DNA of 64,000 nucleotides from Lachnospiraceae bacterium (GTDB taxonomy: Bacteria; Bacillota; Clostridia; Lachnospirales; Lachnospiraceae), in assembly GCA_017614155.1 (NCBI GenBank), contig JAGACK010000046.1, positions 1 to 64,000 of the forward strand. Direction: 5' to 3'. Of the stretch, positions 26,196 through 44,479 are shown one piece after another. The position numbers were made by a program, and so were the translations under genes. The number at the start of each line of letters is the position of its first letter. Position 1 is the first letter of the stretch. The notes under the pieces were generated by a model. It saw nothing but the letters and a program-made list of their open reading frames with translations. It was not told the DNA's origin and made no database searches.

Positions 26196-26241
26196 AAACG
26201 CGGAAATTTCTTTATAAAACAGCGGACCAGCAGGAGGGGGT

Positions 26242-28631: not shown

Positions 28632-28648
28632 ATTAAATATAAATATTC

Positions 28649-28678
28649 TTGCAAAAAATGTTCAATATATGATATATT
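28649..28678 (+). promoter_or_regulatory. Candidate promoter for spoVG
   Basis: TTGCAA at 28649-28654 and TATATT at 28673-28678 are separated by 18 bp, in an AT-rich stretch after glgD. The predicted leader is about 95 nt. Confidence 0.45.
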
Positions 28679-28781
28679 GTACTGACAGTTTCTATAATCA
28701 GCCGGACATGAAGATGAATCCAAAACCATAGTCTGGACGGGTATAGGAAGAACCTTTAGTTCAAAGAAAAGGAGAAAAACT

Positions 28782-29048
28782 ATGGAAATTACGGATGTCA
28801 GGATCAGAAAAGTTGACAAAGAAGGAAAGATGAAGGCCATCGTATCGATCACTTTAGATGATGTGTTCGTGGTACACGATATCAAGGTTATCGAGGGAGA
28901 GAAGGGCCTTTTCATTGCAATGCCCAGCCGCAAGGGTGCGGACGGAGAATACAGGGATATAGCTCATCCCATCAATTCCGATATGAGGACAAAGATCCAG
29001 GATCTCATTCTTGAAACATACAACAAGGAGATCGCATCGGAGGCGTGA
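28782..29048 (+). CDS. spoVG: SpoVG, small RNA/DNA-binding regulator
   Basis: An 88-residue protein matching the family from its first residues: [60 protein letters not shown]. SpoVG is a conserved site-specific nucleic-acid-binding protein that affects sporulation and division in Bacillus and virulence genes in other Firmicutes. Presence of the gene does not prove sporulation. AAAAGGAG precedes the ATG, and a terminator follows. Confidence 0.96.
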
Positions 29049-29087
29049 CCTTTCAAGGTTGAAGGAAAAAGATATTGTTGTTACAAT

Positions 29088-29120
29088 AGGAAGACCCGGA
29101 AGCGGAGTCTTCCTTTTTTT
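29088..29120 (+). terminator. Intrinsic terminator after spoVG
   Basis: AGGAAGAC pairs with GTCTTCCT, with an inner loop of 11 nt, and a run of seven T residues ends at 29120. Confidence 0.88.
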
Positions 29121-29132
29121 GTGAGGTAAACT

Positions 29133-29696
29133 ATGATAATAATAGCAGGATTGGGAAATCCTGACAGCGAATATGAAGGAACAAGGCATAATACAGGTTT
29201 TGAGGTGGTCGATGTCCTCGCCGGGATGCTGAAGATCAGGGTGAACAGGAAGAGATTCAAGGGCCTGTACGGCAAGGGAAAAGCCGGTTTGGAGGATGTG
29301 CTGCTCCTCAAGCCCCAGACATATATGAACCTGAGCGGAGAGAGCATAGCTGCGGCATGTTCTTATTATAAGGCAGATGTGAGCACGGATCTGATCGTGA
29401 TATATGACGATGTGGATCTTGATCCCGGGAGGATCAGGATCAGAAAGTCCGGCTCTGCCGGGGGACACAACGGAATGAAGAATATAATAGAGCATCTTCA
29501 TACCCAGGATTTTGTCAGGGTCAGAGTCGGCGTCGGGGCGAAGCCTCAGGGGTATGACCTGATAAACTGGGTCCTGGGCCATTTCAAGGGGGATGATGTA
29601 TCCCTGATGGAGGATGCCAGACAGAAAGCAGCCGATGCCGTTTTGTCGGTCATCGAAGATGGCGCGGATCGTGCCATGAACAGGTACAATTCATGA
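29133..29696 (+). CDS. pth: Peptidyl-tRNA hydrolase
   Basis: A 187-residue enzyme that frees tRNA from stalled peptidyl-tRNA. Key family residues are visible: GLGNPDSEYEGTRHNTGFEVVD (catalytic His in RHNTG), LLKPQTYMNLSGES, VIYDDVDL and GSAGGHNGMKNI. Length is standard. The stop overlaps mfd by 4 nt (ATGA), the common pth-mfd order of Firmicutes. Confidence 0.97.
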   Translation: MIIIAGLGNPDSEYEGTRHNTGFEVVDVLAGMLKIRVNRKRFKGLYGKGKAGLEDVLLLKPQTYMNLSGESIAAACSYYKADVSTDLIVIYDDVDLDPGRIRIRKSGSAGGHNGMKNIIEHLHTQDFVRVRVGVGAKPQGYDLINWVLGHFKGDDVSLMEDARQKAADAVLSVIEDGADRAMNRYNS

Positions 29697-32600
29697 AAGC
29701 CTTCACTGAACCCCTTAAAGATCTGGGTATCTTTGATGAACTGCAAAGTGCCGTCAGATGCGCCGGTATCACCGATGTGGATGGCGTGGTTGACGGGGCA
29801 AAGACCTTTCTGGCCCATGCCCTGAAAAACAGCGGCATAAGTGTTTTTGTCACTTCCAATGATGCTGCGGCAAGGCAGATGGTGGAAGAAAACCTGCTTT
29901 TTACCAGGAATGTCTTTTATTATCCTGCAAAGGATATAATCTTTTATCAGTCGGACTTAAGCGGAAATTTCCTGACAACACAGAGGATGTCTGCGATAAA
30001 GGCGCTGACGGAGTATTCCGGGGGTCAGAGCCTTGTGATAGTGACGACTTTTGATGCCCTCATGGAAAGGGTTCCGAACCTTTCGACTATTACCGATGCC
30101 GTGATCCGCATTAAAACAGGGGATGTCATCGATATTGCCGGACTGTCAAAAAAACTCGTGTCATGCGGATATGAAAAAAGCGTCGAGGCGCAGTCGCCCG
30201 GACAGTTTGCCGTCAGGGGCGGGATCATTGATGTTTTCGGACTTACTGATGACAATCCTGTAAGGATCGAGCTTTGGGGCGATGAAGTTGACTCCATCAG
30301 GGGCTTTGACGCCATGAGCCAGAGATCGATAGAAAAGCTTGAAACGGTTACGGTGTATCCTGCTACAGATCTTGTGATCAGTGAGGATGCAGGAAGAGAC
30401 GCGTCTTTTGTGATCAGAAAAGAAGCAGAGGAAAGAGAAGCTTATTTCAGGTCACGGATGAAGACCCAGGAGGCTCACCGGATAAAAACAAGCGTAAATG
30501 AATTTCTTGAACAGCTTGAGGAATGCGCATCTGCCGCAAATGCCGCGGCCTTTATCCCTTATTATTTTGATGAACTGGTAACGCTTGCAGACCGTTTCCC
30601 GGAAGATACGGTGTTTTTTCTCGACGAGCCTTCAAGGCTTGAGGAAAAGGGAAAAAATACCGAAGCGGAGTTTTCGGAGAGCATGACGCACAGGCTTGAG
30701 GGGGGATATATCCTTGCCGGACAGACAGGGATCCTTGAAAGCACAGAGGCAGTGTTCGCAAAGCTTTCAAAAAGGAGCTGCATCTCTTTTTCCACGCTCA
30801 GGATGAAGCATGACAGTTACAGGGAAAGGGCAGCCCTGAGCCTGCTTTCAAGGCCTGTGGCGGCGTATAATAAAAGCTTTGAGATGCTTTCGTCAGATCT
30901 GAAGAAGAAGAAAAAAGACTCGTTTCGGACGATAATCCTTTCGCCTTCGCATACGAGGGCAAGGCATATAGCGGATGATCTGACTGAAAATGAGGTGACG
31001 GCGTTTTACAGTGAAGATCCCGAAAGGGTTCCTCAGAAGGGCGAGGTGATGACTGCCTACGGGAGCCTGGGCAAAGGTTTTGAAATGCCGGATATAGGAT
31101 TTCTCGTCATCTCGGAAACTGATATTTTCGGAAGCGGGAAAAAGAAGAAAAAAAGGCATGTCAGGTACGAGGGAACAAAGATAGCAAGCTTCACCGACCT
31201 GGTCATAGGCGACTATGTGGTGCACGAGAACTTCGGCATAGGCATTTACCGCGGGATAGAGCATATCGAGATAGAGGGAGTGGTCAGGGATTATGTCAGG
31301 ATCGAATATGCCGACAACAGTTTCGTAAATGTCATAGCCTCAAATCTGGAGTCGCTTCAGAAATATGCATCCTCCGATACGGATAAAAAAGTTAAGATTC
31401 ACAGGATCGGTACCGGCGAGTGGAAAAAGACAAGGCAGAGAGTCAGGGGGGCAGTCCAGGGTGTCGCAAAAAAACTGGTCGAGCTCTATGCCGAAAGGAT
31501 CCAGGAGAAGGGTTATGTCTTTTCGGAGGATACCCAGTGGCAGCGGGAATTTGAAGAGATGTTTCCCTTTGAAGAGACGGAGGATCAGCTCCGGGCCATA
31601 GAGGATGTAAAAAGGGATATGGAAAGCCGCAGGATCATGGACCGTCTCATCTGCGGCGATGTCGGATTCGGAAAGACCGAGGTCGCGATCAGAGCTGCAT
31701 TCAAGGCCGTGCAGGAAGGGAAGCAGGCAGCCTTTCTGGTGCCCACGACCATCCTTGCCGAGCAGCATTACAACACCTTCATCCAGAGGATGGCGCGGTA
31801 TCCGGTAAGGACAGAGCTCCTTTGCAGGTTCAGGACGCCCTCGCAGCTTAAAAAGACCATACAGGGACTGAAGGACGGAACGGTCGACATAGTCATCGGG
31901 ACGCACAGGCTTCTTTCAAAGGATGTTGCCTTCAAAGACCTGGGGCTTCTGGTCGTGGATGAAGAGCAGAGATTCGGCGTGACAGCAAAGGAAAAGATAA
32001 AGGAACTGAGGAAAAATGTGGATGTGCTGACGCTTACCGCAACGCCCATACCAAGAACTCTTCATATGTCCTTAGTCGGAATCAGGGACATGAGCCTGCT
32101 TGAGGAGGCGCCGGAGGACCGCCTGCCGATACAGACCTTTGTGATGGAATACAGCGACGAGACCGTGCGCGAGGCCATAAACCGCGAGCTTGGAAGAAAC
32201 GGGCAGGTCTACTACGTCTATAACAGGATAAATGACATAGCCGACATCACTGCGAAAATCCGGACGCTTGTGCCGACGGCTGTGGTCGAATATGCCCACG
32301 GCAGGATGGAAGAAAGAAAGCTTGAAAACATCATGCTTGATTTCATAAACGGGGATATAGATGTTCTGGTATCGACGACCATAATAGAAACGGGACTGGA
32401 TATTCCCAATGTCAACACCATGATAATCCATGATTCCGACAGGATGGGGCTTGCACAGCTGTATCAGCTGCGCGGCAGGGTCGGAAGGTCCAACAGGACA
32501 AGCTATGCTTTCCTGATGTACAAAAGAGACAAAATGCTGAGGGAAACGGCAGAAAAGAGACTTGCCGCGATCAGGGAATTCACGGATCTGGGGTCGGGCT

Positions 32601-33205
32601 TCCGCATTGCCATGAAGGACCTGGAGATCAGGGGGGCAGGCAATGTGCTGGGCGCCGAACAGTCGGGGCATATGGAGGAAGTGGGATATGACCTGTACTG
32701 CAGGATGCTCGACAGCGCGATAAAGCAGGAAAAGGGAGAAGACACCGTTCCGGAGTTTTCCACCTTCCTTGACATGGATGTGGATGCCTACATACCGAAC
32801 ACCTATGTGAGAAATGAGAATATCAAGCTTGATCTTTACAAGAGGATCGCATCCATCGAGACAGAGGAGGAAGCTTCGGATATGGCCGATGAACTTTCCG
32901 ACAGATTCGGACAGATACCGAAAAGCGCTCAGAACCTCATAAGGATCGCGCTGCTGAGGGCAAAGGCGCATATGATCTACATAGAAAAAATGGAGGTAAG
33001 AAAAGATCATATCAGGTTTGATATGTTCATGAACGCCCAGGTGGATCCGGCTGCCATCGCGCCGATGCTTGCAGGGTTTGAGGGCCGGATGTCTTTCAGG
33101 ACAAAGGGAAAGCCCTGTTTTGTGTATGAGATAAAGGGTGAAAAAAAGGACCTCATCGATGTGGCTGACGAGGTCCTGGATAAGATGCAGGTGCTGGTGC
33201 AGTGA
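29693..33205 (+). CDS. mfd: Transcription-repair coupling factor Mfd
   Basis: A 1170-residue translocase that removes RNA polymerase stalled at DNA damage and recruits UvrA. In order: UvrB-like N-terminal part (to about 350, including FAVRGGIIDVFG), an RNA polymerase-interaction domain (about 500-560, DYVVHENFGIGIYRGIEHIE), and a RecG-like motor with Walker A GDVGFGKTEVA, DEEQRFG (DEEQ box), LTATPIPRTLHMS, and GRVGRSNRTSYAFL. The C-terminal regulatory domain begins near 1000. Translation is coupled to pth. The gene ends 17 bp from convergent pncB with no terminator between. Confidence 0.98.
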   Translation: MKAFTEPLKDLGIFDELQSAVRCAGITDVDGVVDGAKTFLAHALKNSGISVFVTSNDAAARQMVEENLLFTRNVFYYPAKDIIFYQSDLSGNFLTTQRMSAIKALTEYSGGQSLVIVTTFDALMERVPNLSTITDAVIRIKTGDVIDIAGLSKKLVSCGYEKSVEAQSPGQFAVRGGIIDVFGLTDDNPVRIELWGDEVDSIRGFDAMSQRSIEKLETVTVYPATDLVISEDAGRDASFVIRKEAEEREAYFRSRMKTQEAHRIKTSVNEFLEQLEECASAANAAAFIPYYFDELVTLADRFPEDTVFFLDEPSRLEEKGKNTEAEFSESMTHRLEGGYILAGQTGILESTEAVFAKLSKRSCISFSTLRMKHDSYRERAALSLLSRPVAAYNKSFEMLSSDLKKKKKDSFRTIILSPSHTRARHIADDLTENEVTAFYSEDPERVPQKGEVMTAYGSLGKGFEMPDIGFLVISETDIFGSGKKKKKRHVRYEGTKIASFTDLVIGDYVVHENFGIGIYRGIEHIEIEGVVRDYVRIEYADNSFVNVIASNLESLQKYASSDTDKKVKIHRIGTGEWKKTRQRVRGAVQGVAKKLVELYAERIQEKGYVFSEDTQWQREFEEMFPFEETEDQLRAIEDVKRDMESRRIMDRLICGDVGFGKTEVAIRAAFKAVQEGKQAAFLVPTTILAEQHYNTFIQRMARYPVRTELLCRFRTPSQLKKTIQGLKDGTVDIVIGTHRLLSKDVAFKDLGLLVVDEEQRFGVTAKEKIKELRKNVDVLTLTATPIPRTLHMSLVGIRDMSLLEEAPEDRLPIQTFVMEYSDETVREAINRELGRNGQVYYVYNRINDIADITAKIRTLVPTAVVEYAHGRMEERKLENIMLDFINGDIDVLVSTTIIETGLDIPNVNTMIIHDSDRMGLAQLYQLRGRVGRSNRTSYAFLMYKRDKMLRETAEKRLAAIREFTDLGSGFRIAMKDLEIRGAGNVLGAEQSGHMEEVGYDLYCRMLDSAIKQEKGEDTVPEFSTFLDMDVDAYIPNTYVRNENIKLDLYKRIASIETEEEASDMADELSDRFGQIPKSAQNLIRIALLRAKAHMIYIEKMEVRKDHIRFDMFMNAQVDPAAIAPMLAGFEGRMSFRTKGKPCFVYEIKGEKKDLIDVADEVLDKMQVLVQ

Positions 33206-33222
33206 TAGCTGTTTTGCCTGCG

Positions 33223-34689
33223 TCAGGAAAATGTTTTTCCTTCTACTGACATTTCGTTCAAAAGATTTATCTTCATGTCGTAGAGCTTTTTTGAAAGATC
33301 GACATGTACATTATGAGGGTTGACCAGACGCCTGGTCTCTTCCCACAGTGTATCAAGCTCCTTTTTGCAGAATTCCCTCATTTCCATAACGGTTGGTGAT
33401 TCGTATACGCATTTTCCCTCGTCAAAGACTTTGATCATGATCTCGCGCAGCGTGAATTCGCCGGGTTTCAGATATGTCTTTTTCCAGGGCTCTGAAGGGT
33501 CAAAGAGCAGAAGCTCTTCATCCTCTTTGAAGGTCTCTTCTTCAAGGCAGATCAGATCGGCTTTTACCTTGCCTTCCGCATCATATACCCTGTAGATCTT
33601 TTTGTTTCCGGGATTTGTGATCTTTTCGCTGTTTTCCGAAAGCTTGATCTTTGGAATGAAGGAACCGTCCTTTGATCGTATCGCTGCAAGCTTGTATACC
33701 CCGCCGAAAGCAGGCCAGTCCTTTGAGGTTATGAGATTTGTACCGACGCCCCAGCTGGTGATCTTTGCTCCCTGAGCCTTCAGTGAATCTATCAGGAATT
33801 CATCGAGATCGTTGCTGGCAGAGATGACAGCATCCGTAAAGCCCGCGTCATCGAGCATCTTTCTGGCCTTTTTTGACAGATAGGCAAGGTCTCCGGAATC
33901 AAAGCGGATACCGTACAGTTTCGGATGGATGCCCTTTTCCTTCAGTTCCTGAAATACCTTTATGGCATTCGGGACGCCGCTTTTTAAGGAATCGTAGGTG
34001 TCCGCGATAAGGAGGCACGCGTCGGGATAGATCTCGGCATATTTTCTGAAGGCTGTAAGCTCATCGGGAAAGCTCATTACCCAGGAGTGGGCATTCGTGC
34101 CCTTGACCGGAACATCAAAGAGCTGTCCGCAGAGCACGTTTGAAGTCCCGATACAGCCACCGATCATGGCCGCCCTTGCGCCGTATGTTCCCGCATCCGG
34201 ACCCTGCGCACGCCGAAGCCCGAATTCCATCACGCCGTCGCCTCTTGCCGCAAAGCAGACCCTTGAGGTCTTGGTAGCGATCAGCGACTGGTGGTTTATG
34301 ATGTTTAAGATCGCGGTCTCGATCAGCTGTGCCTGCATGATCGGAGCGATGACCTTCACGATAGGCTCTCTCGGGAATATGACCTCGCCTTCCGGGATCG
34401 AGTATATGGTGCCCGTGAAACGGAAGGTTTTCAGATATTCGAGGAAGTCCTCCCTGAAGATTCTAAGTGAGCGCAGGTAATCTATATCTTCTTTTTCGAA
34501 CCGGAGTTCTTTTATGTATTCTATCATCTGCTCGAGGCCGGCCATGACGGCATAGCCGCTCTCGAGAGGATTTGTGCGGTAGAACATGTCAAAGATAACG
34601 GTCTGGTTTGCGTTTTCGTTTTTGAAGTAGCCCTGCATCATTGTCAGCTCGTACAGATCGGTCAAAAGAGTCAGGTTCTGTCTGTCCAT
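33223..34689 (-). CDS. pncB: Nicotinate phosphoribosyltransferase
   Basis: A 488-residue enzyme joining nicotinate to phosphoribosyl pyrophosphate for NAD salvage. Evidence: LLTDLYELTMMQGYF at the start, FDMFYRTNPLESGYAVMAG, FGLRRAQGPDAG, GGCIGTSNVLCGQLF, GTNAHSWVMSF, GIRFDSGDLAYLSKKAR and SWGVGTNLITS, all typical of the PncB family. GGAGG lies 5 nt before the ATG. The gene is alone on the minus strand with a good promoter. Confidence 0.95.
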   Translation of the reverse strand: MDRQNLTLLTDLYELTMMQGYFKNENANQTVIFDMFYRTNPLESGYAVMAGLEQMIEYIKELRFEKEDIDYLRSLRIFREDFLEYLKTFRFTGTIYSIPEGEVIFPREPIVKVIAPIMQAQLIETAILNIINHQSLIATKTSRVCFAARGDGVMEFGLRRAQGPDAGTYGARAAMIGGCIGTSNVLCGQLFDVPVKGTNAHSWVMSFPDELTAFRKYAEIYPDACLLIADTYDSLKSGVPNAIKVFQELKEKGIHPKLYGIRFDSGDLAYLSKKARKMLDDAGFTDAVISASNDLDEFLIDSLKAQGAKITSWGVGTNLITSKDWPAFGGVYKLAAIRSKDGSFIPKIKLSENSEKITNPGNKKIYRVYDAEGKVKADLICLEEETFKEDEELLLFDPSEPWKKTYLKPGEFTLREIMIKVFDEGKCVYESPTVMEMREFCKKELDTLWEETRRLVNPHNVHVDLSKKLYDMKINLLNEMSVEGKTFS

Positions 34690-34725
34690 ATCATCCTCCG
34701 TTGGTGATGTACTGTGTTTCTATAA

Positions 34726-34754
34726 ATTATGCTTTTTTGGAGGGGTAAAGTCAA
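34726..34754 (-). promoter_or_regulatory. Promoter of pncB
   Basis: On the minus strand TTGACT and CATAAT are separated by 17 bp; the start codon is about 37 nt downstream. Confidence 0.65.
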
Positions 34755-34769
34755 TATGGGGAGGGGGCC

Positions 34770-34839
34770 GTACCTGCGACCCTGATTTTGTGTGTTTTAC
34801 AGGTATCATAACGACTCGAAAAAGGGCGTCGCAGCACAG
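34770..34839 (+). repeat. Intergenic repeat, copy A (inverted relative to copy B at 44193-44262)
   Basis: A 70-nt stretch opening GTACCTGC, with a conserved core that begins TATCATAACG and contains TCGAAAAAGGGCGTCGCA. Copy B lies on the minus strand at 44193-44262. By hand alignment the two match at 58 of 70 positions without gaps, and 33 of 36 in the core. The pair bounds the accessory island between pncB and ileS. Confidence 0.8.
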
Positions 34840-34935
34840 AGCCTGCAGGCACCTTGGCGGGTGCGGCTCCTGTGTGTGGGGCACGGGAGAGAATGACAGT
34901 TCAATTGTTTTGGAATTGATTTTATTATACTATGA

Positions 34936-35626
34936 AAAAAAGAAGGAAAAGGGGGAAATGTAATACCAGATGCTTATAAGGAAGTTATATCTGACATGGA
35001 GGTAACTGAGGTCAGAAGAAAAGCCAGTGATGAGGGGGATGAAGATGAAGAAAAAGCTTCCATATATGGTACACCTGAAGAGATGCAGGAAAGGGCAAAA
35101 GAAAGAAATTTTGTAAGAGACCCGGAACGAAATCTGGTCTACTGTCCTAACGGAGAGATCCTCAGACAGAAATGCGTAAAGAAAAATGGGAATATAAGAT
35201 ATGCCAATAAAAATGCCTGCCGTCATTGTCCTAACAGGAACAAGTGCTATAAAGGTAAGAACGAGTGGAAAGAGATAGACTTCACAAAAGATTGTTTGGA
35301 GAAGCCGTGTCGAGACTGGTTAAAAGCTGAAGGAAAAACGCTTGATAAAAATAAAGTGCCAAAGGGAAAATACCACTTTGAGATAAAGAAAGTTGTCAAG
35401 TTTTTCCTAAAGCCAAAACGGGAAAAAAACGGCTGAACGAATGTGCCTGTCGGAGCATCCGTTTGGAACTATAAAAAGAGCTATGGGATTCACCTGCTTC
35501 CTGCTAAAAGGCATGAGGAAGGTGACGGGGGAGTTTGCGCTCATGTGCCTTGGGTACAATATAAAACGAGCTAAAAACTTGCTTGGATTTAATAAAATGA
35601 TGGAATTGATGGTGGCAGGAGCCTGA
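34936..35626 (+). pseudogene. IS1182-type transposase remnant, 5'-truncated and frameshifted
   Basis: Two frames together give the C-terminal part of an IS1182 family transposase. The first (from an open frame at 34936, ending near 35436) contains YCPNGEILRQKC and a cysteine cluster NKNACRHCPNRNKCY, the zinc-type motif of this family. The second (35441-35626, another frame) begins EHPFGTIKRAMGF and has GMRKVTGEFALMCLGYNIKR, the conserved end of the same protein. The junction near 35436-35445 needs a frameshift. The N-terminal half with most of the DDE catalytic site is missing, so it is inactive. It lies immediately inside repeat copy A. Confidence 0.85.
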
Positions 35627-35828
35627 AAACCATCCGTATATGCGCTTTATTCAGTTGTTAAGGTCAGATATTAATTTCTAACGAAATATAGCATATTTGA
35701 TGCAAAAAACAGGCTACAGATCGCTGAAAATCAAGGTTTTCGGACGGTCTGAGGGGGGTAACGGCGGTCACACGATAATGTACTGTGGGCTATGTCAAAA
35801 TATAAAGCAGTAACGGAAAAGTTCCTGC

Positions 35829-35857
35829 TTGACAACTGCATTCAGATTTAGTAAAAA
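35829..35857 (+). promoter_or_regulatory. Candidate promoter for the riboswitch-RHS transcript
   Basis: A perfect TTGACA at 35829-35834 is followed after 17 bp by TAAAAA at 35852-35857, a weak -10. The predicted start is about 20 nt upstream of the riboswitch. Confidence 0.5.
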
Positions 35858-35884
35858 TAAAGACTGTTGAGGGGTTTTTGTTCA

Positions 35885-35972
35885 TATATTTTCGGCAAAC
35901 CTGAGGAAATTCAGGGACGCAAAGCCAGAGTCTAAGATAATACAGGGGGTTATCGTATTATTATGATTGTTC
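35885..35972 (+). promoter_or_regulatory. c-di-GMP-I (GEMM) riboswitch aptamer
   Basis: The GEMM-I consensus is easily read: GGCAAACC, a stem CCTGAG/TTCAGG closed by a GAAA tetraloop, then GGGACGCAAAGCC pairing back to the first GGC. Next comes TCTAAG and a second hairpin (ATAATAC with GTATTAT, loop AGGGGGTTATC) that would act as the tetraloop receptor arm. The G before CAAACC favours c-di-GMP over cGAMP, but this would need structural alignment. A terminator hairpin follows within a few bases, so control is probably by premature termination. The only gene downstream is the RHS protein. The direction of control (on or off with ligand) is not visible. Confidence 0.88.
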
Positions 35973-36008
35973 GGCTGCAGTGATGACACTGCAGCCAATT
36001 TTTGTTTT
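35973..36008 (+). terminator. Riboswitch expression-platform terminator
   Basis: GGCTGCAG pairs with CTGCAGCC over an 8-nt loop, followed by AATTTTTGTTTT. Its 5' arm begins where the aptamer ends, so ligand-dependent folding could compete with it. The RHS start is 28 nt farther on. Confidence 0.8.
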
Positions 36009-36036
36009 AACAGATTTTGAGGGGAGAGATACACAT

Positions 36037-39000
36037 ATGTCCGCCAATAAAAAGCACTACAGAAACAAACTGATATTGATGCTTGCCTTTGTCCTGGCCT
36101 TCGAGCATCCTCTTGCTATTTTTGCGTCTGAAAATACAACACCTGAGGCAGTTTTGGATAATACGGTTTCTGAAGGAGAAATACCCGGGGATGGCATATC
36201 AGATGATAACCCGCCGGAGGAGGCAGTACCTGAGGATATGGTTTCAGAGGACACCATTCCGGAGGAGAGCACCTCAAAAAATTCCGTTCCACCTGATACG
36301 GTTTCAGGAAATGTAAGCAATAACAGCGCTTCTGACAATGACATATCCGGCAATTCTGTGTCAAATAATTCTCTTTCTGAAGATGAGATTCCCGACGGCT
36401 ATTATGCAGATGAGGGCTATGAGCATTATGAGATGTCCTCCGTCAGCCCGGATGATCTTTTGCATGAGCTTCCCCGGTACAGGTCGGAAAATGTCAAGGT
36501 GTATGAGCATCCCGACCACAGCGTGACGGCTTATTACTACGCAGAGCCGGTCAATTATGAGCGCAGTGACGGAAGCTTTGCGACCATAGACAACAGACTT
36601 CATTTTTCGGAGGGCAGCAGTGAGAATAAGGTCTTTGCGGGATATACCAATACCTCTGCGCCCTTTCGCCTAAGGTTTGCCCAGGCGGCGGATGAGAGAA
36701 AGCTTTTTGATTTTTCGGATGATACCTTCGAGGTTTCTTTCATATATGTCCCATCTTCAAAAACTGTTTTTAATACAGACAATATATCTGTTTCGTCATC
36801 GGAGGCTGTTTCAGGTAATACTGTTTGGAAAACTCCGGCGGAGCTGATAGATACGGAGGCAAACGAAAAAAAACATTCGGATGAAGCTGTTATTACGGCA
36901 GCAGGCGGGGAGGATGATGCTCCCGCCTCAAATGATACAGATACAGAAAACCCGCTTCCCGTTCTTCCCAATCCCCAGACAGTCCTCTATGAAAATATAG
37001 AAAACGGAGTCACCCTGAGATATCTCCCCATAAGCGACGGAGTAAAGGAAACCATAGTAGTAAGCCGCAATGACGCTCCGTCTGTTTATACCTTTGACCT
37101 GAATGTCAGGGGCTTAAAGGCTGTCATGGAAGAGGGAAACATCCTCCTTAACGATTCTGACGGTCAGACCCTGTATGAGATCCCGGCACCCGTGGTCACA
37201 GACGGGGCAGGAAACACAGACTGCGAAGCTTACTATGAGCTTGAGACCATAGAGGAGTCCGGGAAATACAGACTGAAGGTCTTTGTAGATGAGGAGTGGC
37301 TTGAGGATGAGGCGAGAGTATTTCCCGTCGAGATAGATCCCACCATGCGCAGGTTCAGGAAATATAAAGACTGGTCAGCCCTGGGGGATTTTGTCAGCGT
37401 GCGATCTGACGGAAAGACAAGTGAAAAAAGTCTTGTTACCGGAACAAAGAGCAAAAAGGTAAAGAAAAAGACAAAAAAGATAAAAAGCCGCATATACATG
37501 AGACCGACCCTGCCCGAGATACCAAAGGGAAGTGTCGTCACAAAGGCAACGCTTACCGTTTCCGTCTCAAACCTAAGCGGAAGCGTCAAAAATTTCTATG
37601 CTGTCGCAGTTCCCGGCAAATGGAGCAGAAAGAGTATCAAATGGGACAATCAGCCCTGTAATGATGCCGCATTAAAGAAGTGCCTAAAAAGGATCAGTGA
37701 TTACGGTACTGACGGTGATTCTGTGAGCCTTGATATCACAAGGGATGTAAAAAACTGGACCTCAGGGAAGGTATCATACAACGGGCTTTGCTTTATCACG
37801 GCAAATGAAAACAAGAATGCCACCAAGGAAATAGAGCCTTTAAGAGACAGTAAAAAGCCCTTTCTTTCCGTCACCTACAGGGATTTTACGGGACTGGAGG
37901 ATTACTGGAGCACCCATACCCAGGGAGCAGGCAGCGCAGGTACGGGAAGCATAAATGATTATACGGGTTCCCTGACCTTCGTCCATCAGGATGCAAAGAG
38001 CGCAGGTGAAAGGATGCCCTTATGTGTATCCCATGTCTTTAATGACACCTACGGAGATCGCCCAGGAGAGGAAAAGTGGGATGATACGGCAGGCACTGCC
38101 TACGGAGAGCATTTCAGGCTTTCGACGGATGTGAGGCTCCTCGTGCCTGTGGGAGAAACAGATATAAAAAAATATCCCTATGTCTATATAGATTCAGACG
38201 GCACAAAGCATTTCTTCAAAAAATCAAAGGTTACCTACTACGTAAATGGCGCATCAAAAAACGCTGCGGAGGATAATAAGGAGCACCCGGCAGCAAAGGA
38301 TGAGGACGGTCTGGGTCTTTTTGCAGTGCCCGTGACGAACGCCGATCTGAAGGGAAAATATCCCTTAAAGATAGTCAATAAAAGCGGAAGCACCTCCATG
38401 TACTTTGATGCATCGGGTTATCTTGGCATGATAACCGACTCCAATCAGAGAGAGGACGGCAAAAACTCCCAGAAAAAGGATAGAAACGCCATAACCATAG
38501 AGCATTCATCGCAGGATCACGATGGCGAGGGTGATAAGACAAGGCTTAGAGCGTTCCGTGACGAGATAGAGACCTACAAAGAGAAAACCTCCTCCGCCAA
38601 TGATATCTATGATGCATGTGAAGACGGGATAGCAAGGCTTGAAGCCTTTGAGAACGAATGCCTTTATGTCTGTGTCAATTATCCTGCGGCGATCTGTGTA
38701 CAAAATGCCAAAATCCATCTGCAGAACATTATAGACGGTGCAGCTAAGAGCAAAAGAAAGGAGCAGATAAATGCTGCGCTTGACGAGCTTGACAAGCTCC
38801 TGAAAAAAGACTTCAAGGCAGCAAAAGAAAAAACCGTTTCCGTAACCGATGCCGCAGGCATAAAAAGCAATCTTAACTACGATGCAAACGGGCGTCTCAT
38901 ATCCATGACCGATCCCTTCGAGCAGAACAGAGAGATAACCTACACCTATGATAAAAACTCATATCTGACAAAGATCACTCATCCAAACGGTGAAACGGCA

Positions 39001-42000
39001 GCCTTTACCTATGATGACAAGGGTCACCTGCTTTCGGCAAAGGATGAGACCGGAAAAAGGATAGTCTACAGATACGGGACAAAGAAAAAGCCTTCGGAAA
39101 AGGTCACTGCCATGCGTGAGTTTGTAAAAAAGGCAGGTGGTCAGACTGTCCTTATTAACTACGATGATTACAATAAGACCGCCTTTACCTATACGGGCTG
39201 CGATGAAAAGATAAATACAGATGATGATATCGAAAATGTCTGCTGCTTTGATGACAAGGGTCGTACCACAGGCTCCTATTTAAGGGTTAAGAAAACGAAA
39301 AAGATAATAGGAGCCGGCTCTTATGCCTACTCAGACGAGGGCTCTGCGGCAAACCACCTCAAGGAATCGTCCGCTGCGGGAGGCCCCGTCATAAATCTTT
39401 TGACGGACGGAAGCTTTGAAAAAAAGAAGACGAAGGCATGGGAGAGGGTTGATGAATGCAATAAGGGCGAGGATTGTCATATTATCGAGAAAACCGAAAC
39501 AAAAAAATATATGGGTTCAAGGTCTGCTCATGTAAAGCTTACCGGAAAGGCTGAGCATACAGGCAGGATCGGCTACAGGCAGACCGTGACTGCAAATGCC
39601 ACGGGCTATTATACCGCCTCCGTTTATGTAAAAGCATGTAATATCAAAAACGCAAAGGCTGTGCTTTCGGTAGAAGTAAATGACAAGGAAAAGGGCACAA
39701 AGGGAGATGAAGAGGAAAACGATGAGACCGATACGGATCCGCAGGATGAGGTTGATCCCGACGACCCTGACCTGTATGACCCGGGCGACGGTGAAAACTT
39801 TGATGAAGAGGATGACGATGAGGATACCCCGGGCTCACAGGAGGAGGGGACGGTTGATGAAAATACTCCCGCCGAGTTCACAAGCGGCTGGAAACGCATA
39901 GAGACAACCGTAAAGGTAAAAAAGGGACAAAGTATCACCGTCGGCCTATACGGAGAGGGAGAAAGGGCGGATATATATTTTGACTGCGTCCAGCTGGAAA
40001 AGGGAAGGGTTGCGGGACAGTACAACCTGCTGCCTAATTCAGGCTTCGAGATGGGCTCATATTCCAAAAAGAAGGGATCAAAGGTTATCCCTGCAGGCTG
40101 GGCATATACCGATGATTCCGGTGTGGTTGATGCAAGGCTTGTGACATCAAAGGAGCTGGGAGGCGGAAAGAACAGGGTGGCAGAGGGAAAATATGCCCTG
40201 TGCATTTCCGGAAATACCGGGAAAAAGAAGGTGCTTGTGGCAAATCCCAACTTCGGAAAGGGAAAGGTCTCCTACACCTTTTCCTGCTATGTCATGACCT
40301 CCTGTGCGCCGGTGCACGGCGACCGTAAATGCTGCATCTATATAAAGGGTGACATGCCCGAATTCGATGAGAGCGACCCTATCCAAAAGCTCTTAAAGGA
40401 TATGATAAAGGAGGAGGATATCGCTCCGGCGGCATACACCGAGATAAATACCGGTATAGAGGGCTGGCAGTATGTGACCATGCAGCTTCCTGTCAGGGAC
40501 TGGAGCGGCAAGCGCATAGAGATACACTTTGACAAGGAATGCGGAACCCTGTGCATAGACGGCTGTATGCTCACAAGGGATGAGGTGAAGGCAAAGACCT
40601 ATACATCATCGGGAAAGCTTAAGACCTCAAAGGACGGTGAGAGGACCACCACCTATGCCACAAACAAGCGTGATCTTCAAAGCAAGGAGACCATGCCTGC
40701 GGGAGCCACAACCACCTACAAGTATAATAAGATCACAAACGACCTGAACGAGGAGGCGCATACCTTTACCCAGTCAGGCAAGAAAAAGGTTGACCGGACC
40801 AGATACACCTATGACAGGTTCGGAAATCCCATCAAAACCTTAGAAACCGGACCCTCAAAGAGAAAGCTTGTGACAGAGAGCGTTTATTCGGGAGACGGGC
40901 GTTTTGAGATTTCTGACAATAACAGCAGGGGATATGTGACGGCATATGAGTATGACACGGCAACGGGCATGGTAAAAAGCTCTACGGATCCTAAAGGGAA
41001 GCAGACCCTTTATGAATACAATGCCTTTCATGATCCCACGGCTGTAAAGTTTGAAGGCTCAGCGGTTTCCTTTAAGTACGAAAAGGATGATCACAGCAGA
41101 CTGGAAACCATAACCGCCGGTACGGGTAAGGAAAGCATTAAATATAATTTCGACTATAACAGCTTCGGAAATGTTGCAAAGATCAAAAGATCAGGCTCTG
41201 ATACCGATCTGATAGGGTACAGCTATGGCGCACGAAACGGAAAGCTTAAAAAGATAACCTACGGAAACGGCAGTACCGTATCCATGCGCTACAATACCCT
41301 CGAGCAGCTGACGAGAAAGCGCTACAGCGACGGAAATATCTACTATTACTACGATAACAAGGGCAGAACCGCCCGTATAAGCGACACAAAAAATAAGCTG
41401 GGCTACAGCTTTAACTATGACGAGACAGGAAGAGTCACGGACTCGTCCGTCTACAGGACGAAGAAGGCAAAGGGTGAATCCTCAAACGAGATCATCCGCT
41501 TCGGAAGCCTCTATGACAAGGCCGGCAGACAGTCCGCCTTCACCTATCGTTATGACGGTAAGACCTATCGCTCTAAGTACGGCTATACCACTGATGACAA
41601 GCCCTCTGTAACGGCTCTTGCAAGCGGCGGCTGGTATAAGACAGGATATGACAATCTGTCAAGGACTGCCTCTGAAACCTTCATATCCCAGAAAAACAAG
41701 GCGACAAATGAAAGCAAGGCAAGAAAGACCGGAGCGACCGTAAAGACGACCATCACCTATCTGGATACGGACAGGAAGGGTGATGAGGGTATCTCTACGG
41801 ACAAAAAGAAGTATGAATTTACCACCGCCCTTCCCGGAGTGATAGAGGTAAAGGCCGGAAAGAAGAGCATCTTAAAGGAGAGTCTGTCCTATGATAAGAC
41901 AGGCAGGATATCCGGCTGGAATGGTACAGGCTACAGCTATGACGGTCTGGGGAGACTCGTATCCGCAAGGGACGGCGGTGGGAGAGAGTGGAGCTATGAG

Positions 42001-43302
42001 TACGATTCCGTAGGGAACATCACAAAGAGCTCATATTTTGACGGAACAGACGTTACAGAGGATAAGTATGACTATAAAAACGGAAATCTCACAAAGTTCA
42101 ACGGTAAGAGTATAGGCGGATACAAGGGAGGAAATCCCGGAACATATCTCGGGAAAAAGCTTACCTGGGAAAGAGGCAGGCTGCTGTCAAGGATAGGTGG
42201 GAATATATCATACACCTATGATCTTGACGGCATACGCCTTTCAAAAACTGTAGACAATAAAAAAACAGAGTATATCACAAACGGCAGCACCATCCTGGCG
42301 GAGAAGCGGGGAGGTGAGGTCTTAAACTATTATTATTCCGCTGACGGAAAGCTACTTGAGATCGGCTATTCAAAGAACGGAGCTTTAGAAAATCACTATA
42401 CCATCCTCAGGAATGCCATGGGAGATGTGGCAGGACTCCTTGACCCCAAGGGAACCTTGGTGGGCACCTACGAATACGACCCCTACGGAAAGCTCATAAA
42501 GATCAATCACAACAGCGAATATACAGATACAGATGGAATACTCGAGCGCAACCCCTTCCGCTACAGAGGCTACTACTACGATACCGAAACCGGCTGGTAT
42601 TACCTGCAAAGCCGCTACTATGACCCTGCCGTAAAGCGTTTCATAAATGCAGATACAACGGATCTTCTGACTAATGACTGTGTGAATCTCATGCAGTACA
42701 ATCTCTTCATGTACTGCAACGGTGATCCGGTGAATAATACAGATTATAGCGGCAGGCTCACGGATGTTGAAAGATATTTTCTTATGGCTACTACATTAGC
42801 TGCGTTTGCAGCTGTTTTGGTCATAACAGGAGGTACCGGAGCCATAGCAATGGGAGCTGTAATCGGGGTGACCGGAGGTGCTGCGATAGGCTTTGGAGCA
42901 GCCGGAATAGCGAGTTTGCTTAATGGATCAGATGCAAATACAGCAATCTCAAATGCAGCGGATGGGCTTGTCATTGGAAGTACTGTTGGCATGTTTGGTG
43001 GAGCTGCTGCCGGTGCATGTATTACCGCAACTACAATGAGTACAGAAACAGCTGCATGTTATGCAAATGCATCGGCTGGAGTGTCCAATGAAAAAGGCCA
43101 AATGTTAGATTATGACTTGCAATTTTTTGCCAAAAAAAGAGATATTCAACAAATAGAAAAAATCTCTAAAATTTTTAAGATAGATAGACGGGCTTATGGG
43201 GATTTTGTAGAGGATTTTAAGAAATGGGAGGGATTACCAAGTAATTATACTTTTTCATTTAATAGATTAAAAGAATTAGCTAGGATTTTTAAGAATCAGT
43301 AG
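36037..43302 (+). CDS. Secreted giant RHS/YD-repeat protein with a toxin-like C-terminal tip
   Basis: A 2421-residue protein, the largest in the window. ATG 36037 follows GGGGAG; an upstream frame from 35980 lies within the terminator. A signal peptide ends near IFAS (about 32). Then come a Ser/Asp/Asn/Glu-rich linker (to about 120), beta-rich domains to about 660, a coiled stretch near 830-930, YD repeats (GRLISMTDPF, YDDKGHLLSA and others), carbohydrate-binding-like domains near 1120-1520 with a very acidic insertion at about 1222-1278, and YD repeats to 2170. The RHS core closes with FRYRGYYYDTETGWYYLQSR at about 2174 and RFINADTTDLL. Beyond residue 2240 the sequence is variable: a Gly/Ala-rich hydrophobic stretch, then a 63-residue end from YDLQFFAKKRD with IDRRAYGDFVEDF. 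Such tips are usually polymorphic toxins; this one cannot be named. An immunity-like gene follows. Confidence 0.88.
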   Translation: MSANKKHYRNKLILMLAFVLAFEHPLAIFASENTTPEAVLDNTVSEGEIPGDGISDDNPPEEAVPEDMVSEDTIPEESTSKNSVPPDTVSGNVSNNSASDNDISGNSVSNNSLSEDEIPDGYYADEGYEHYEMSSVSPDDLLHELPRYRSENVKVYEHPDHSVTAYYYAEPVNYERSDGSFATIDNRLHFSEGSSENKVFAGYTNTSAPFRLRFAQAADERKLFDFSDDTFEVSFIYVPSSKTVFNTDNISVSSSEAVSGNTVWKTPAELIDTEANEKKHSDEAVITAAGGEDDAPASNDTDTENPLPVLPNPQTVLYENIENGVTLRYLPISDGVKETIVVSRNDAPSVYTFDLNVRGLKAVMEEGNILLNDSDGQTLYEIPAPVVTDGAGNTDCEAYYELETIEESGKYRLKVFVDEEWLEDEARVFPVEIDPTMRRFRKYKDWSALGDFVSVRSDGKTSEKSLVTGTKSKKVKKKTKKIKSRIYMRPTLPEIPKGSVVTKATLTVSVSNLSGSVKNFYAVAVPGKWSRKSIKWDNQPCNDAALKKCLKRISDYGTDGDSVSLDITRDVKNWTSGKVSYNGLCFITANENKNATKEIEPLRDSKKPFLSVTYRDFTGLEDYWSTHTQGAGSAGTGSINDYTGSLTFVHQDAKSAGERMPLCVSHVFNDTYGDRPGEEKWDDTAGTAYGEHFRLSTDVRLLVPVGETDIKKYPYVYIDSDGTKHFFKKSKVTYYVNGASKNAAEDNKEHPAAKDEDGLGLFAVPVTNADLKGKYPLKIVNKSGSTSMYFDASGYLGMITDSNQREDGKNSQKKDRNAITIEHSSQDHDGEGDKTRLRAFRDEIETYKEKTSSANDIYDACEDGIARLEAFENECLYVCVNYPAAICVQNAKIHLQNIIDGAAKSKRKEQINAALDELDKLLKKDFKAAKEKTVSVTDAAGIKSNLNYDANGRLISMTDPFEQNREITYTYDKNSYLTKITHPNGETAAFTYDDKGHLLSAKDETGKRIVYRYGTKKKPSEKVTAMREFVKKAGGQTVLINYDDYNKTAFTYTGCDEKINTDDDIENVCCFDDKGRTTGSYLRVKKTKKIIGAGSYAYSDEGSAANHLKESSAAGGPVINLLTDGSFEKKKTKAWERVDECNKGEDCHIIEKTETKKYMGSRSAHVKLTGKAEHTGRIGYRQTVTANATGYYTASVYVKACNIKNAKAVLSVEVNDKEKGTKGDEEENDETDTDPQDEVDPDDPDLYDPGDGENFDEEDDDEDTPGSQEEGTVDENTPAEFTSGWKRIETTVKVKKGQSITVGLYGEGERADIYFDCVQLEKGRVAGQYNLLPNSGFEMGSYSKKKGSKVIPAGWAYTDDSGVVDARLVTSKELGGGKNRVAEGKYALCISGNTGKKKVLVANPNFGKGKVSYTFSCYVMTSCAPVHGDRKCCIYIKGDMPEFDESDPIQKLLKDMIKEEDIAPAAYTEINTGIEGWQYVTMQLPVRDWSGKRIEIHFDKECGTLCIDGCMLTRDEVKAKTYTSSGKLKTSKDGERTTTYATNKRDLQSKETMPAGATTTYKYNKITNDLNEEAHTFTQSGKKKVDRTRYTYDRFGNPIKTLETGPSKRKLVTESVYSGDGRFEISDNNSRGYVTAYEYDTATGMVKSSTDPKGKQTLYEYNAFHDPTAVKFEGSAVSFKYEKDDHSRLETITAGTGKESIKYNFDYNSFGNVAKIKRSGSDTDLIGYSYGARNGKLKKITYGNGSTVSMRYNTLEQLTRKRYSDGNIYYYYDNKGRTARISDTKNKLGYSFNYDETGRVTDSSVYRTKKAKGESSNEIIRFGSLYDKAGRQSAFTYRYDGKTYRSKYGYTTDDKPSVTALASGGWYKTGYDNLSRTASETFISQKNKATNESKARKTGATVKTTITYLDTDRKGDEGISTDKKKYEFTTALPGVIEVKAGKKSILKESLSYDKTGRISGWNGTGYSYDGLGRLVSARDGGGREWSYEYDSVGNITKSSYFDGTDVTEDKYDYKNGNLTKFNGKSIGGYKGGNPGTYLGKKLTWERGRLLSRIGGNISYTYDLDGIRLSKTVDNKKTEYITNGSTILAEKRGGEVLNYYYSADGKLLEIGYSKNGALENHYTILRNAMGDVAGLLDPKGTLVGTYEYDPYGKLIKINHNSEYTDTDGILERNPFRYRGYYYDTETGWYYLQSRYYDPAVKRFINADTTDLLTNDCVNLMQYNLFMYCNGDPVNNTDYSGRLTDVERYFLMATTLAAFAAVLVITGGTGAIAMGAVIGVTGGAAIGFGAAGIASLLNGSDANTAISNAADGLVIGSTVGMFGGAAAGACITATTMSTETAACYANASAGVSNEKGQMLDYDLQFFAKKRDIQQIEKISKIFKIDRRAYGDFVEDFKKWEGLPSNYTFSFNRLKELARIFKNQ

Positions 43303-43335
43303 GTTGAAATTATTATTATTTTTGCGAGGGTAAAG

Positions 43336-43731
43336 ATGAACTATAAATTTGTATTAAGAATAAGCGGGGAGGACATGGATTTTGATTACATTTGTAATAA
43401 GTTGGGGCCAGAGAATTGCGATAAAAAGAAAAAGGGTGATAAATTTGCTGGTTTTATAAGTGTTCCACATGACACGGTTATATTTGAAAAAAATTATTCT
43501 GATTTTGAATACGGATCACAAGATTTCATTATGCACTTATATTATAAAAAAAACGTACTAAATAAAATAAAAAAAATGAATAGTATTAATTTATATCTAT
43601 GTTGTTACATTTGCTCAGAGATGGGACAAATTGGTTTTTTTGTTTCAAGCACTATTATGAAATACTTATCAGAAATTGAACTTGATCTCAATTTTGATAT
43701 TCTTTCCTTTGGGTTGGCGGAGGTAGATTAA
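43336..43731 (+). CDS. DUF4279-like protein, probable immunity to the RHS tip
   Basis: A 131-residue cytoplasmic protein, 33 bp after the RHS gene. The pattern FVLRISGEDMDFDYICNKLG, then KGD, later a long helical region and the ending LDLNFDILSFGL resembles DUF4279, whose members are found behind polymorphic toxins and are thought to be immunity proteins. It has low complexity of charge, no signal or membrane helix. It shares the AT-rich composition of the RHS tip and differs from the core genes around it, as expected of a module exchanged together with the tip. The ribosome site is a weak GCGAGGG. Confidence 0.75.
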   Translation: MNYKFVLRISGEDMDFDYICNKLGPENCDKKKKGDKFAGFISVPHDTVIFEKNYSDFEYGSQDFIMHLYYKKNVLNKIKKMNSINLYLCCYICSEMGQIGFFVSSTIMKYLSEIELDLNFDILSFGLAEVD

Positions 43732-43820
43732 GCTTAGGACAGCTCAAAATAAAATTCAGAGTTTGTTAGAAAATGAAAAGATAAACGATATTCCGCAAAA
43801 TCCTAATATAAAAAGTGGCA

Positions 43821-43863
43821 AATGCGGACACAACGGATCTTCTGACCAACGACTGCGTGAATC
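43821..43863 (+). pseudogene. Orphan fragment of an RHS core end
   Basis: These 43 bases match 42646-42688 of the RHS gene at 38 positions. In the RHS frame the fragment encodes NADTTDLLTNDCVN, identical to the intact gene, and all five differences are in third codon positions. It is followed at once by unrelated sequence. It is therefore the scar of a second, diverged RHS core copy whose tip was lost or moved. Confidence 0.8.
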
Positions 43864-44033
43864 GATGCCACCGCATCGCCGCATTCAGACGCCTTGCAGA
43901 TAAAAAATCATTCTGCGTAAAAAGTCCAGATATTTGAAAACTGCTATACTAGGCTTCTGTAGATTTATTATGAGTTATCAAGCCCATCCATTACTATTAC
44001 CGGCGGGCCGGATCCTCCAGGGAGTATACCTTG

Positions 44034-44153
44034 TTAAGGTATGCCTTCTGGCACAGTGTAACAAAAATAATCATCTTGCATCTTTCCACCACCGCTTACT
44101 TCTTCAAGCTTTCGCATCATCATTTCAAGGATCAGATACCTATAATATTTCAT
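44034..44153 (-). CDS. Possible 39-residue peptide with double-glycine-like motif
   Basis: An open frame on the minus strand encodes a basic, hydrophobic start, then MMMRKLEEVSGGGKMQDDYF and a short tail ending at TAA. LxxVSGG resembles the double-glycine leader seen on exported peptides (hydrophobic at -4 and -7 before GG). There is no ribosome site and the peptide after GG is only about 17 residues, so it may be a decayed leader-bearing gene. Repeat copy B lies 40 nt upstream on the same strand. Confidence 0.3.
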   Translation of the reverse strand: MKYYRYLILEMMMRKLEEVSGGGKMQDDYFCYTVPEGIP

Positions 44154-44192
44154 GTAACGTTCATGTCAAAATCTATGTATGGGCCGCGGATG

Positions 44193-44262
44193 CTGTTTTG
44201 CGACGCCCTTTTTCGAGCCGTTATGATACCCGGAAAACGCAATTAAACAGGGATGCAGGTAC
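44193..44262 (-). repeat. Intergenic repeat, copy B
   Basis: Inverted partner of copy A at 34770-34839. The core reads TATCATAACGGCTCGAAAAA on the minus strand. The copies share 58 of 70 positions. It overlaps the hairpin starting at 44255. Confidence 0.8.
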
Positions 44263-44309
44263 ATGGATGTACCTGCAAGGCCGCATGAACATGGATGTGA
44301 ATTGCGGCC
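44255..44309. repeat. Two adjacent palindromic hairpins
   Basis: GCAGGTACAT/ATGTACCTGC forms a 10-bp perfect stem with a 2-nt loop (44255-44276). GGCCGCA/TGCGGCC forms a 7-bp stem (44279-44309) with a 17-nt loop. Both contain the string ACATGGATGT. No T-tract follows. They look like a REP-type element joined to repeat copy B. Confidence 0.6.
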
Positions 44310-44479
44310 GACCCGTCACTCCGGCAGATTCCGGAGGCGTTTTCCCGATATCATAGGCGAGAAAAAACCGGCGAGCAAAACGGGATCTGCGGCCCAGACA
44401 AATCACCGCGGGAATTCAGATTTTGCACATTTCCGTGGGGTGAGACGGCAAAACCAAGGCAAAGTGGTTGACATAAAAA

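What the first reader, a model, noticed from the sequence alone, without database searches (positions are those of the whole stretch)
35885..43302. c-di-GMP riboswitch controls a giant secreted RHS toxin-like protein
A clear GEMM-I aptamer followed directly by an intrinsic terminator lies in front of a 2421-residue RHS protein with signal peptide. Riboswitch control of motility, adhesion and exopolysaccharide genes by c-di-GMP is known; linking it to a polymorphic-toxin type protein would tie contact-dependent antagonism to the sessile/motile switch. The same window holds an HD-GYP-like protein and a proteolytic flagellin, both c-di-GMP-linked functions.
Basis: partly seen in the sequence, partly recalled or inferred. 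Interest (0 to 1): 0.85.

Follow-up and report, generated by a model that had tools for sequence, protein, structure and literature searches.

The report
c-di-GMP riboswitch before toxin gene
A gut Lachnospiraceae bacterium carries an inserted gene for a giant secreted protein that looks like a weapon against neighbouring bacteria, and its RNA leader looks like a sensor of the signal c-di-GMP that would switch the gene on; the parts are known kinds, the pairing seems rare, and nothing has been tested at the bench.

Summary
A c-di-GMP-I (GEMM-I) aptamer at 35884-35982 (60.2 bits, cut-off 35, E 2.8e-9) is followed by a 10-bp intrinsic terminator and an intact 2421-aa RHS protein. The terminator's 5' arm is the aptamer's own 3' strand, including the residue equivalent to ligand-pairing C92. 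Aptamer and terminator exclude each other, so the simplest prediction is an ON switch, opposite to class I switches reported in C. difficile. The RHS protein has polymorphic-toxin anatomy: a core shared with relatives, an unrelated tail, a DUF4279 neighbour (candidate immunity protein, also beside a similar tail in another genus), and an RHS-core remnant downstream. The unit sits in a 9.65-kb insertion absent from the closest relative found. It is the only GEMM-I match found in a genome with 30 GGDEF matches. In the genus, 24 of 29 GEMM-I matches precede a CAP-like gene; only this one precedes RHS. One second, independent GEMM-I/RHS link was found: a five-gene run in another family (L151), with a different leader layout. 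Ligand binding, switching and toxicity are untested. Known parts, rare pairing, not found in the held papers.

The parts
34700..44348 (.). lineage-specific insertion (islet) holding all parts below
   Evidence: closest relative found, G029 (ileS fragment 97% identical), aligns over 26232-34699 and again from 44349, with 369 bases in between instead of 9.65 kb
34996..35436 (+). fragment of an IS1182-type transposase
   Evidence: NCBIfam NF033551 1.5e-8, profile 347-413 of 488, below its curated cut-off; PF13751 3.7e-4, also below cut-off
35829..35858 (+). promoter-like site TTGACA-18-AAAAAT
   Evidence: 10 of 12 consensus letters; not above the shuffles; start of transcription inferred
35884..35982 (+). 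c-di-GMP-I (GEMM-I) riboswitch aptamer; equivalents of Vc2 G20, A47, C92 at 35894, 35921, 35978
   Evidence: RF01051 60.2 bits, E 2.8e-9; residue mapping by the alignment and a passage of PMC11218506
35973..36008 (+). intrinsic terminator; stem 35973-35996, then U-rich tail; 5' arm is the aptamer's 3' strand
36020..36026 (+). ribosome-binding-site-like AGGGGAG
   Evidence: read from the sequence
36037..43302 (+). secreted RHS/YD-repeat protein, 2421 aa
   Evidence: Rhs core structures in the PDB match by sequence (best 2.3e-20)
42475..42753 (+). RHS-associated core, after which relatives diverge
   Evidence: TIGR03696; divergence
42754..43302 (+). variable C-terminal region (182 aa): hydrophobic stretch, DLQFFAKK, small putative toxin domain
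   Evidence: no blastp match of meaning to the two relatives L060 and L061; last part similar to L106 (28% in alignment; E 7.1e-5)
43336..43731 (+). DUF4279 protein, 131 aa, candidate immunity protein
   Evidence: PF14106 2.7e-7 above cut-off; a DUF4279 protein also beside the similar tail in L106
43820..43863 (+). remnant of an RHS core, 89% identical to 42645-42688

Best explanation
A horizontally acquired polymorphic-toxin islet that carries its own c-di-GMP-I riboswitch. Transcription starts just before the aptamer (inferred). When c-di-GMP is low, the strand at 35973-35982 pairs downstream, the 10-bp terminator forms and transcription stops before the RHS gene (predicted). When c-di-GMP is high, the ligand holds that strand in the base of P3 and in the C92 pair while RNA polymerase passes; only a short hairpin set back from the U-run can then form, and the polymerase reads through into the RHS gene and probably the DUF4279 gene 33 bases behind it (inferred). 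The protein is exported through Sec and delivers its C-terminal domain to neighbouring cells, as WapA-type RHS proteins do, and DUF4279 protects the producer (inferred). The outcome would be antagonism in the sessile, c-di-GMP-high state.
For: Aptamer match with the three ligand-contact residues kept (mapping supported by a passage of PMC11218506), a GAAA loop and a CUAAG/UAUGA receptor by eye. The terminator shares its 5' arm with the paired P3 3' strand: 4 paired aptamer bases plus the C92 equivalent. Folding without ligand: the terminator dominates (pair probabilities 0.987-1.0); forcing the P3 base costs 6.0 kcal/mol (-34.4 against -40.4); during stepwise elongation the P3 base forms first (0.94 by base 35984) and is lost only at 35996; the hairpin left when the C92 equivalent is also held is 4 bp, -1.4 against -18.3 kcal/mol. 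30 GGDEF matches in the genome. Polymorphic anatomy: relatives L060 and L061 share 44% and 42% up to residues 2261 and 2240 and nothing of meaning after that; GC falls to 0.326 over the toxin/immunity end; RHS-core remnant downstream; tail plus DUF4279 pairing repeated in L106. Insertion against a close relative.
Against: The aptamer departs from consensus at several places (Rfam positions 8-9 UU for AA, 84 A for C), so affinity may be poor. With only the P3 base held, the fold still keeps a 6-bp hairpin, so the block rests on the ligand also holding the C92 equivalent. Class I riboswitches of C. difficile act as OFF switches (PMC6200980). Bc1 in B. thuringiensis has terminators that unfold with c-di-GMP in vitro, yet its genes did not respond under the conditions tested (abstract and passages). 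No conserved co-occurrence: only one further GEMM-I/RHS link was found, and its leader does not share a strand with the terminator. Toxicity of the tail is unproven: no Pfam or PDB family. Promoter not above chance.
Confidence: 0.55

Rival explanations
1. OFF switch: c-di-GMP lowers RHS expression, as for class I riboswitches of C. difficile, so the protein is made in the motile state.
For: Class I switches of C. difficile act as OFF switches; the one gene that rose (behind Cdi-1-1) was explained by its promoter (abstract and passages of PMC6200980). The second GEMM-I/RHS leader (L151) has a terminator 20 bases beyond the aptamer and a near-isoenergetic antiterminator (-37.2 against -36.2 kcal/mol), which would fit OFF there (a crude fold in which the U-run also pairs with the 5' end).
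Against: In the window no antiterminator is needed or seen: the aptamer strand itself is the terminator arm, so ligand-bound aptamer and full terminator cannot coexist.
Confidence: 0.15
2. The aptamer is a decayed passenger: it came with the islet or was captured, and the terminator now acts as a constitutive attenuator that does not respond to c-di-GMP.
For: Only GEMM-I before an RHS gene in the genus; the two named relatives whose leader was held lack it, as do ten family loci with 1.5-kb flanks, leader probably but not surely covered; consensus departures; the terminator wins by 6 kcal/mol without ligand; Bc1 did not respond in vivo.
Against: Ligand-contact residues, P2, P3, GAAA loop and receptor are all intact and the score is far above cut-off.
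Confidence: 0.2
3. The RHS protein is a surface adhesin or cell-wall protein rather than a toxin; c-di-GMP control is then ordinary adhesion control.
For: Class I and II switches control adhesins in C. difficile; in L151 the RHS gene stands behind CBM3/fn3 and VWA/fn3 surface-protein genes; a CBM96/DNRLRE domain is present.
Against: C-terminal divergence after a shared core, low-GC tail with a DUF4279 neighbour, core remnant, and repeat of the tail/DUF4279 pair in another genus.
Confidence: 0.15

Closest known systems
c-di-GMP-I riboswitches of Clostridioides difficile (e.g. before flgB, before ppep-1)
   Same: same riboswitch class, transcriptional control, motility and surface genes (PMC6200980, PMC11477304, abstract and passages)
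   Different: those act as OFF switches; no RHS gene among the targets in the passages seen; here the aptamer strand is itself the terminator arm
Bc1 riboswitch of Bacillus thuringiensis
   Same: class I, GAAA loop and receptor, terminators that unfold with c-di-GMP in vitro (PMC11218506, abstract and passages)
   Different: long platform with two terminators before mcpE; no response in vivo under the tested conditions
WapA/RHS polymorphic toxins of Gram-positive bacteria (Streptococcus suis WapA, Bacillus subtilis WapA)
   Same: exported RHS protein with exchangeable C-terminal toxin (S. suis, PMC12704120 abstract); WapA as a delivered tRNase toxin (B. subtilis, PMC5566331 start of abstract)
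   Different: no riboswitch control of such a protein turned up in the searches made; toxin tail and DUF4279 partner of the window are not assigned to a known toxin family
GEMM-I before CAP-domain genes in the same genus
   Same: same riboswitch class before a secreted protein in 24 of 29 matches, 20 genes counting tandem pairs once
   Different: shorter P3 and often another tetraloop than GAAA (by eye); an overlapping terminator is seen in none of the 28 other genus loci

Membership tests
c-di-GMP-I riboswitch (RF01051) | covariance score above the curated cut-off | tested here: met
   60.2 against 35 bits
c-di-GMP-I riboswitch (RF01051) | ligand-contact residues G20, A47, C92 | tested here: met
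   G35894, A35921, C35978 by the alignment; equivalence from PMC11218506 and PMC4744006 passages
c-di-GMP-I riboswitch (RF01051) | binds c-di-GMP | not testable with these tools
   needs in-line probing
c-di-GMP-I riboswitch (RF01051) | ligand-dependent expression platform | tested here: inconclusive
   mutually exclusive terminator predicted; not measured
RHS polymorphic toxin (WapA-like) | RHS/YD repeats and RHS-associated core | tested here: met
RHS polymorphic toxin (WapA-like) | conserved core followed by variable C-terminus | tested here: met
   two relatives compared, both diverge after the core
RHS polymorphic toxin (WapA-like) | immunity gene directly downstream | tested here: inconclusive
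   DUF4279 gene 33 bases behind, pairing repeated in L106; protection not shown
RHS polymorphic toxin (WapA-like) | C-terminal domain is toxic | not testable with these tools
   no Pfam or PDB family found for the tail, so not even an indirect hint of its activity; needs expression in a laboratory strain

The most novel reading that the evidence does not exclude
A mobile toxin islet brings its own second-messenger sensor, so that on arrival it is wired at once into the new host's c-di-GMP network. Because the likely immunity gene sits behind the same terminator with no internal promoter above chance (5 sites found on both strands, 4.8 expected), cells with low c-di-GMP would lack both weapon and protection, and sessile cells could kill siblings that switch back to the motile state: state-dependent policing by riboswitch.
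Probability: 0.15. Interest if true: 0.85.

Novelty: new variant of a known kind. Interest (0 to 1): 0.55.

Why it matters
If true, it would be a direct RNA-level link between c-di-GMP and a Gram-positive polymorphic toxin, and a class I riboswitch that turns transcription on by the simplest possible platform. It also suggests that toxin islets can travel with their own regulatory sensor. Both points can be tested with a short leader RNA and a reporter.

Tried and rejected
Conserved GEMM-I/RHS pairing: rejected as a rule. GEMM-I was found in 161 of 395 relatives (strict filters, about 10 candidates scored per genome, so a lower bound). RHS cores were sought in 142 of the 161 (80, 62); 18 of the other 19 are genus genomes without an RHS core, and one, G233, was left out. 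40 of 80 and 22 of 62 had an RHS core. Coordinates were compared by eye, looking for a GEMM-I match up to about 30 kb upstream on the same strand: only G000 and G252 fit. For the 22 order-level genomes the GEMM-I list was cut short, so 20 stretches upstream of RHS cores, from 16 of the 22 genomes, were scanned with model R1: no convincing match in those 20 (best 15.6 bits, E 0.33). Draft genomes break at RHS genes, so misses are possible.

Origin of the aptamer from the genus's own CAP-linked riboswitch: thought unlikely on sequence type (by eye); no tree was made.

GEMM-II in the genome: none found, but the control genomes were silent too and 150 of 171 candidates were scored, so this does not show absence.

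Toxin family by PDB and plasmid searches: nothing of meaning.

A riboswitch of the 3',3'-cGAMP type (A at the G20 place) was considered and set aside: the position is G (the A20 rule is recalled, from no call).

Full report
Observation. The Rfam scan of the window gives four matches above cut-off, among them c-di-GMP-I (RF01051) at 35884-35982, 60.2 bits, E 2.8e-9. The aptamer is complete. Mapping through the alignment, the equivalents of Vc2 G20, A47 and C92 are G35894, A35921 and C35978; the correspondence of positions 11 and 38 to G20 and A47 agrees with the one given for Bc1 (PMC11218506, passage), and PMC4744006 (passages) names the same three ligand contacts. P2 closes with GAAA and P3 carries CUAAG/UAUGA. 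Departures from the consensus are UU for AA at positions 8-9 and A for C at 84. It is the only GEMM-I match found in the genome, which is 94.67% complete in 59 contigs; 150 of 247 first-look candidates were scored. The same genome has 30 GGDEF matches, so the ligand is very likely made there.

Leader. A TTGACA-18-AAAAAT site lies at 35829-35858, but such sites are not above chance in the stretch. The only terminator-like site is 35973-35996, with 10 pairs and a U-rich tail. Its 5' arm GGCUGCAGUG begins inside the aptamer: GGCU are the 3' partners of AGCC at the base of P3, and the C at 35978 is the C92 equivalent. In ViennaRNA the ligand-free leader is almost wholly in the terminator form (-40.4 kcal/mol); forcing the base of P3 gives -34.4. 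As the chain grows, P3 forms first (0.94 at base 35984) and is displaced only when the terminator is complete at 35996. With only the P3 base held, a 6-bp hairpin remains, set back from the U-run; if the C92 equivalent is held too, a 4-bp hairpin of -1.4 kcal/mol remains against -18.3 for the full one. Ligand energy is not in this model. Read plainly, it is an ON switch. Of 59 GEMM-I loci examined with one terminator pattern, 10 had a terminator and in two (the window and L023) its arm used three or more paired aptamer bases (a looser pattern marked a few more terminators).

The protein. The ORF 36037-43302 encodes 2421 aa with a Sec-like start (by eye), a DNRLRE/CBM96 region, RHS repeats and an RHS-associated core. 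By sequence it matches solved RHS cores of type VI effectors and, weakly, teneurin. Two named Lachnospiraceae relatives share 44% (to residue 2261) and 42% (to residue 2240) and then diverge; the last 182 residues find nothing of meaning in either. Behind the gene, after 33 bases, is a DUF4279 protein. The tail matches one other genome of 397 searched besides its own (E 7.1e-5), and in that locus, L106, the neighbouring gene is again DUF4279 (32.7 bits against a cut-off of 25; 33% over 78 residues). GC drops to 0.326 over 43000-43999 against 0.45-0.50 in the body of the gene. At 43820-43863 lies a 44-base copy of the RHS core, 89% identical to 42645-42688. These are the usual marks of C-terminal cassette exchange in polymorphic toxins (general knowledge). 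The tail belongs to no Pfam or PDB family found, so toxicity is inferred.

The insertion. A 300-residue piece of the downstream ileS was sought in 48 genus genomes; 47 had a match, four of them only weak ones as to a paralogue (G016, G024, G026, G033). In the nearest, G029 (97%), the window aligns to 34699 and again from 44349; in between G029 has 369 bases. In G012 and G007 the aligned parts of the nicotinate phosphoribosyltransferase gene and ileS lie 65 and 39 bases apart, with the former gene in the other orientation; in G045 only ileS aligns. None of these stretches has a GEMM-I match. A piece of an IS1182-type transposase lies at the left end. The aptamer, RHS gene and DUF4279 gene therefore look like one acquired unit.

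How rare is the pairing. Genus: 22 of 48 genomes have GEMM-I (29 matches) and 5 of 48 have an RHS core. 24 of the 29 GEMM-I matches are followed by a frame with the motif RGENLSY, 20 genes if the four tandem pairs are counted once; 4 of 4 such genes tested are CAP proteins. The five others are the window, L041, L047 (cut by the contig end), L058 and L059. Of 80 GEMM-I-positive genomes next searched (76 of the family, 4 of the genus), 40 have an RHS core, and 37 of the 80 have one over the curated cut-off; the GEMM-I search was repeated in those 40, and by eye only the window pairs up. Order: 22 of 62 have an RHS core. One pairs up, G252. There a GEMM-I of 88.8 bits precedes five co-directional genes with gaps of 7 to 48 bases: a CBM3/fn3 protein, a VWA/fn3 protein, two proteins without a family, and a 3335-aa RHS protein whose tail carries HERMH, followed by a small ORF. 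Its terminator lies 20 bases beyond the aptamer, with an antiterminator of about equal energy, so its polarity may be opposite. Twenty other stretches upstream of RHS cores, from 16 of the 22 genomes, gave no convincing GEMM-I. Of the four named relatives of the window's protein, L060 and L061 hold the leader and show none; L062 and L063 start too late to tell. The genus RHS loci hold only the core with up to 1.5 kb around it and cannot tell either. Ten family loci show none at E 1; with 1.5-kb flanks their leaders are probably, not surely, covered.

Literature. Ten searches of the held library were made. Those aimed at a riboswitch with RHS, YD repeats or polymorphic toxins gave no paper on such a link: searches found no paper, three unrelated by title; I saw only listings (30 of 2,710 and 20 of 24 papers). 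This says nothing about papers outside the library. C. difficile class I switches act as OFF switches, with one gene rising for reasons laid to its promoter (abstract and passages, PMC6200980; passages, PMC11477304). Bc1 terminators unfold with c-di-GMP in vitro, but the gene did not respond in vivo under the tested conditions (abstract and passages, PMC11218506). S. suis WapA, an RHS protein, is exported by Sec, is cleaved into fragments and acts against other bacteria (abstract, PMC12704120). c-di-GMP control of type VI secretion is reported in Agrobacterium (search listing, PMC6771610).

Verdict. A real c-di-GMP-I riboswitch candidate in front of a real RHS polymorphic-toxin candidate, on an acquired islet, with a layout that predicts activation. 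Known parts, new pairing as far as searched, two instances found, no bench proof.

Noticed in passing
window 44207-44368 (+): TwoAYGGAY RNA motif (RF01731, 65.6 bits) at the right edge of the insertion, upstream of ileS; not found in the sister locus L147 at the curated cut-off. Its two ACATGGATGT loops resemble CsrA-type sites (recalled).
   Followed up: partly
L151 137-18215 (genome G252): GEMM-I riboswitch heading a five-gene run of CBM3/fn3, VWA/fn3, two unknown and a 3335-aa RHS protein with a HERMH tail: a second, independent c-di-GMP/RHS link.
   Followed up: partly
window 24121-26064 (+): Flagellin whose variable region holds HEMMH and WFVEGTA, resembling a proteolytic flagellin; no Pfam peptidase match.
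   Followed up: partly
L054/L043, L055/L037, L056/L039, L057/L040: Tandem GEMM-I aptamers before CAP-domain genes in the same genus; in the upstream copy the usual GGCAAA reads AGCAAA, which puts A at the G20 place and may change ligand preference (recalled).
   Followed up: no
L023: Another GEMM-I locus whose terminator (19 pairs) takes up the aptamer's own 3' strand, like the window; its gene was not examined.
   Followed up: no
L106 1077-1698 (-): Toxin-like tail similar to the window's, again next to a DUF4279 gene, supporting DUF4279 as an immunity family for this tail.
   Followed up: partly
genus GEMM-I loci L032-L057: CAP-domain secreted proteins appear to be the usual c-di-GMP-I target in this genus (24 of 29 matches by motif, 4 of 4 tested by Pfam).
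   Followed up: partly
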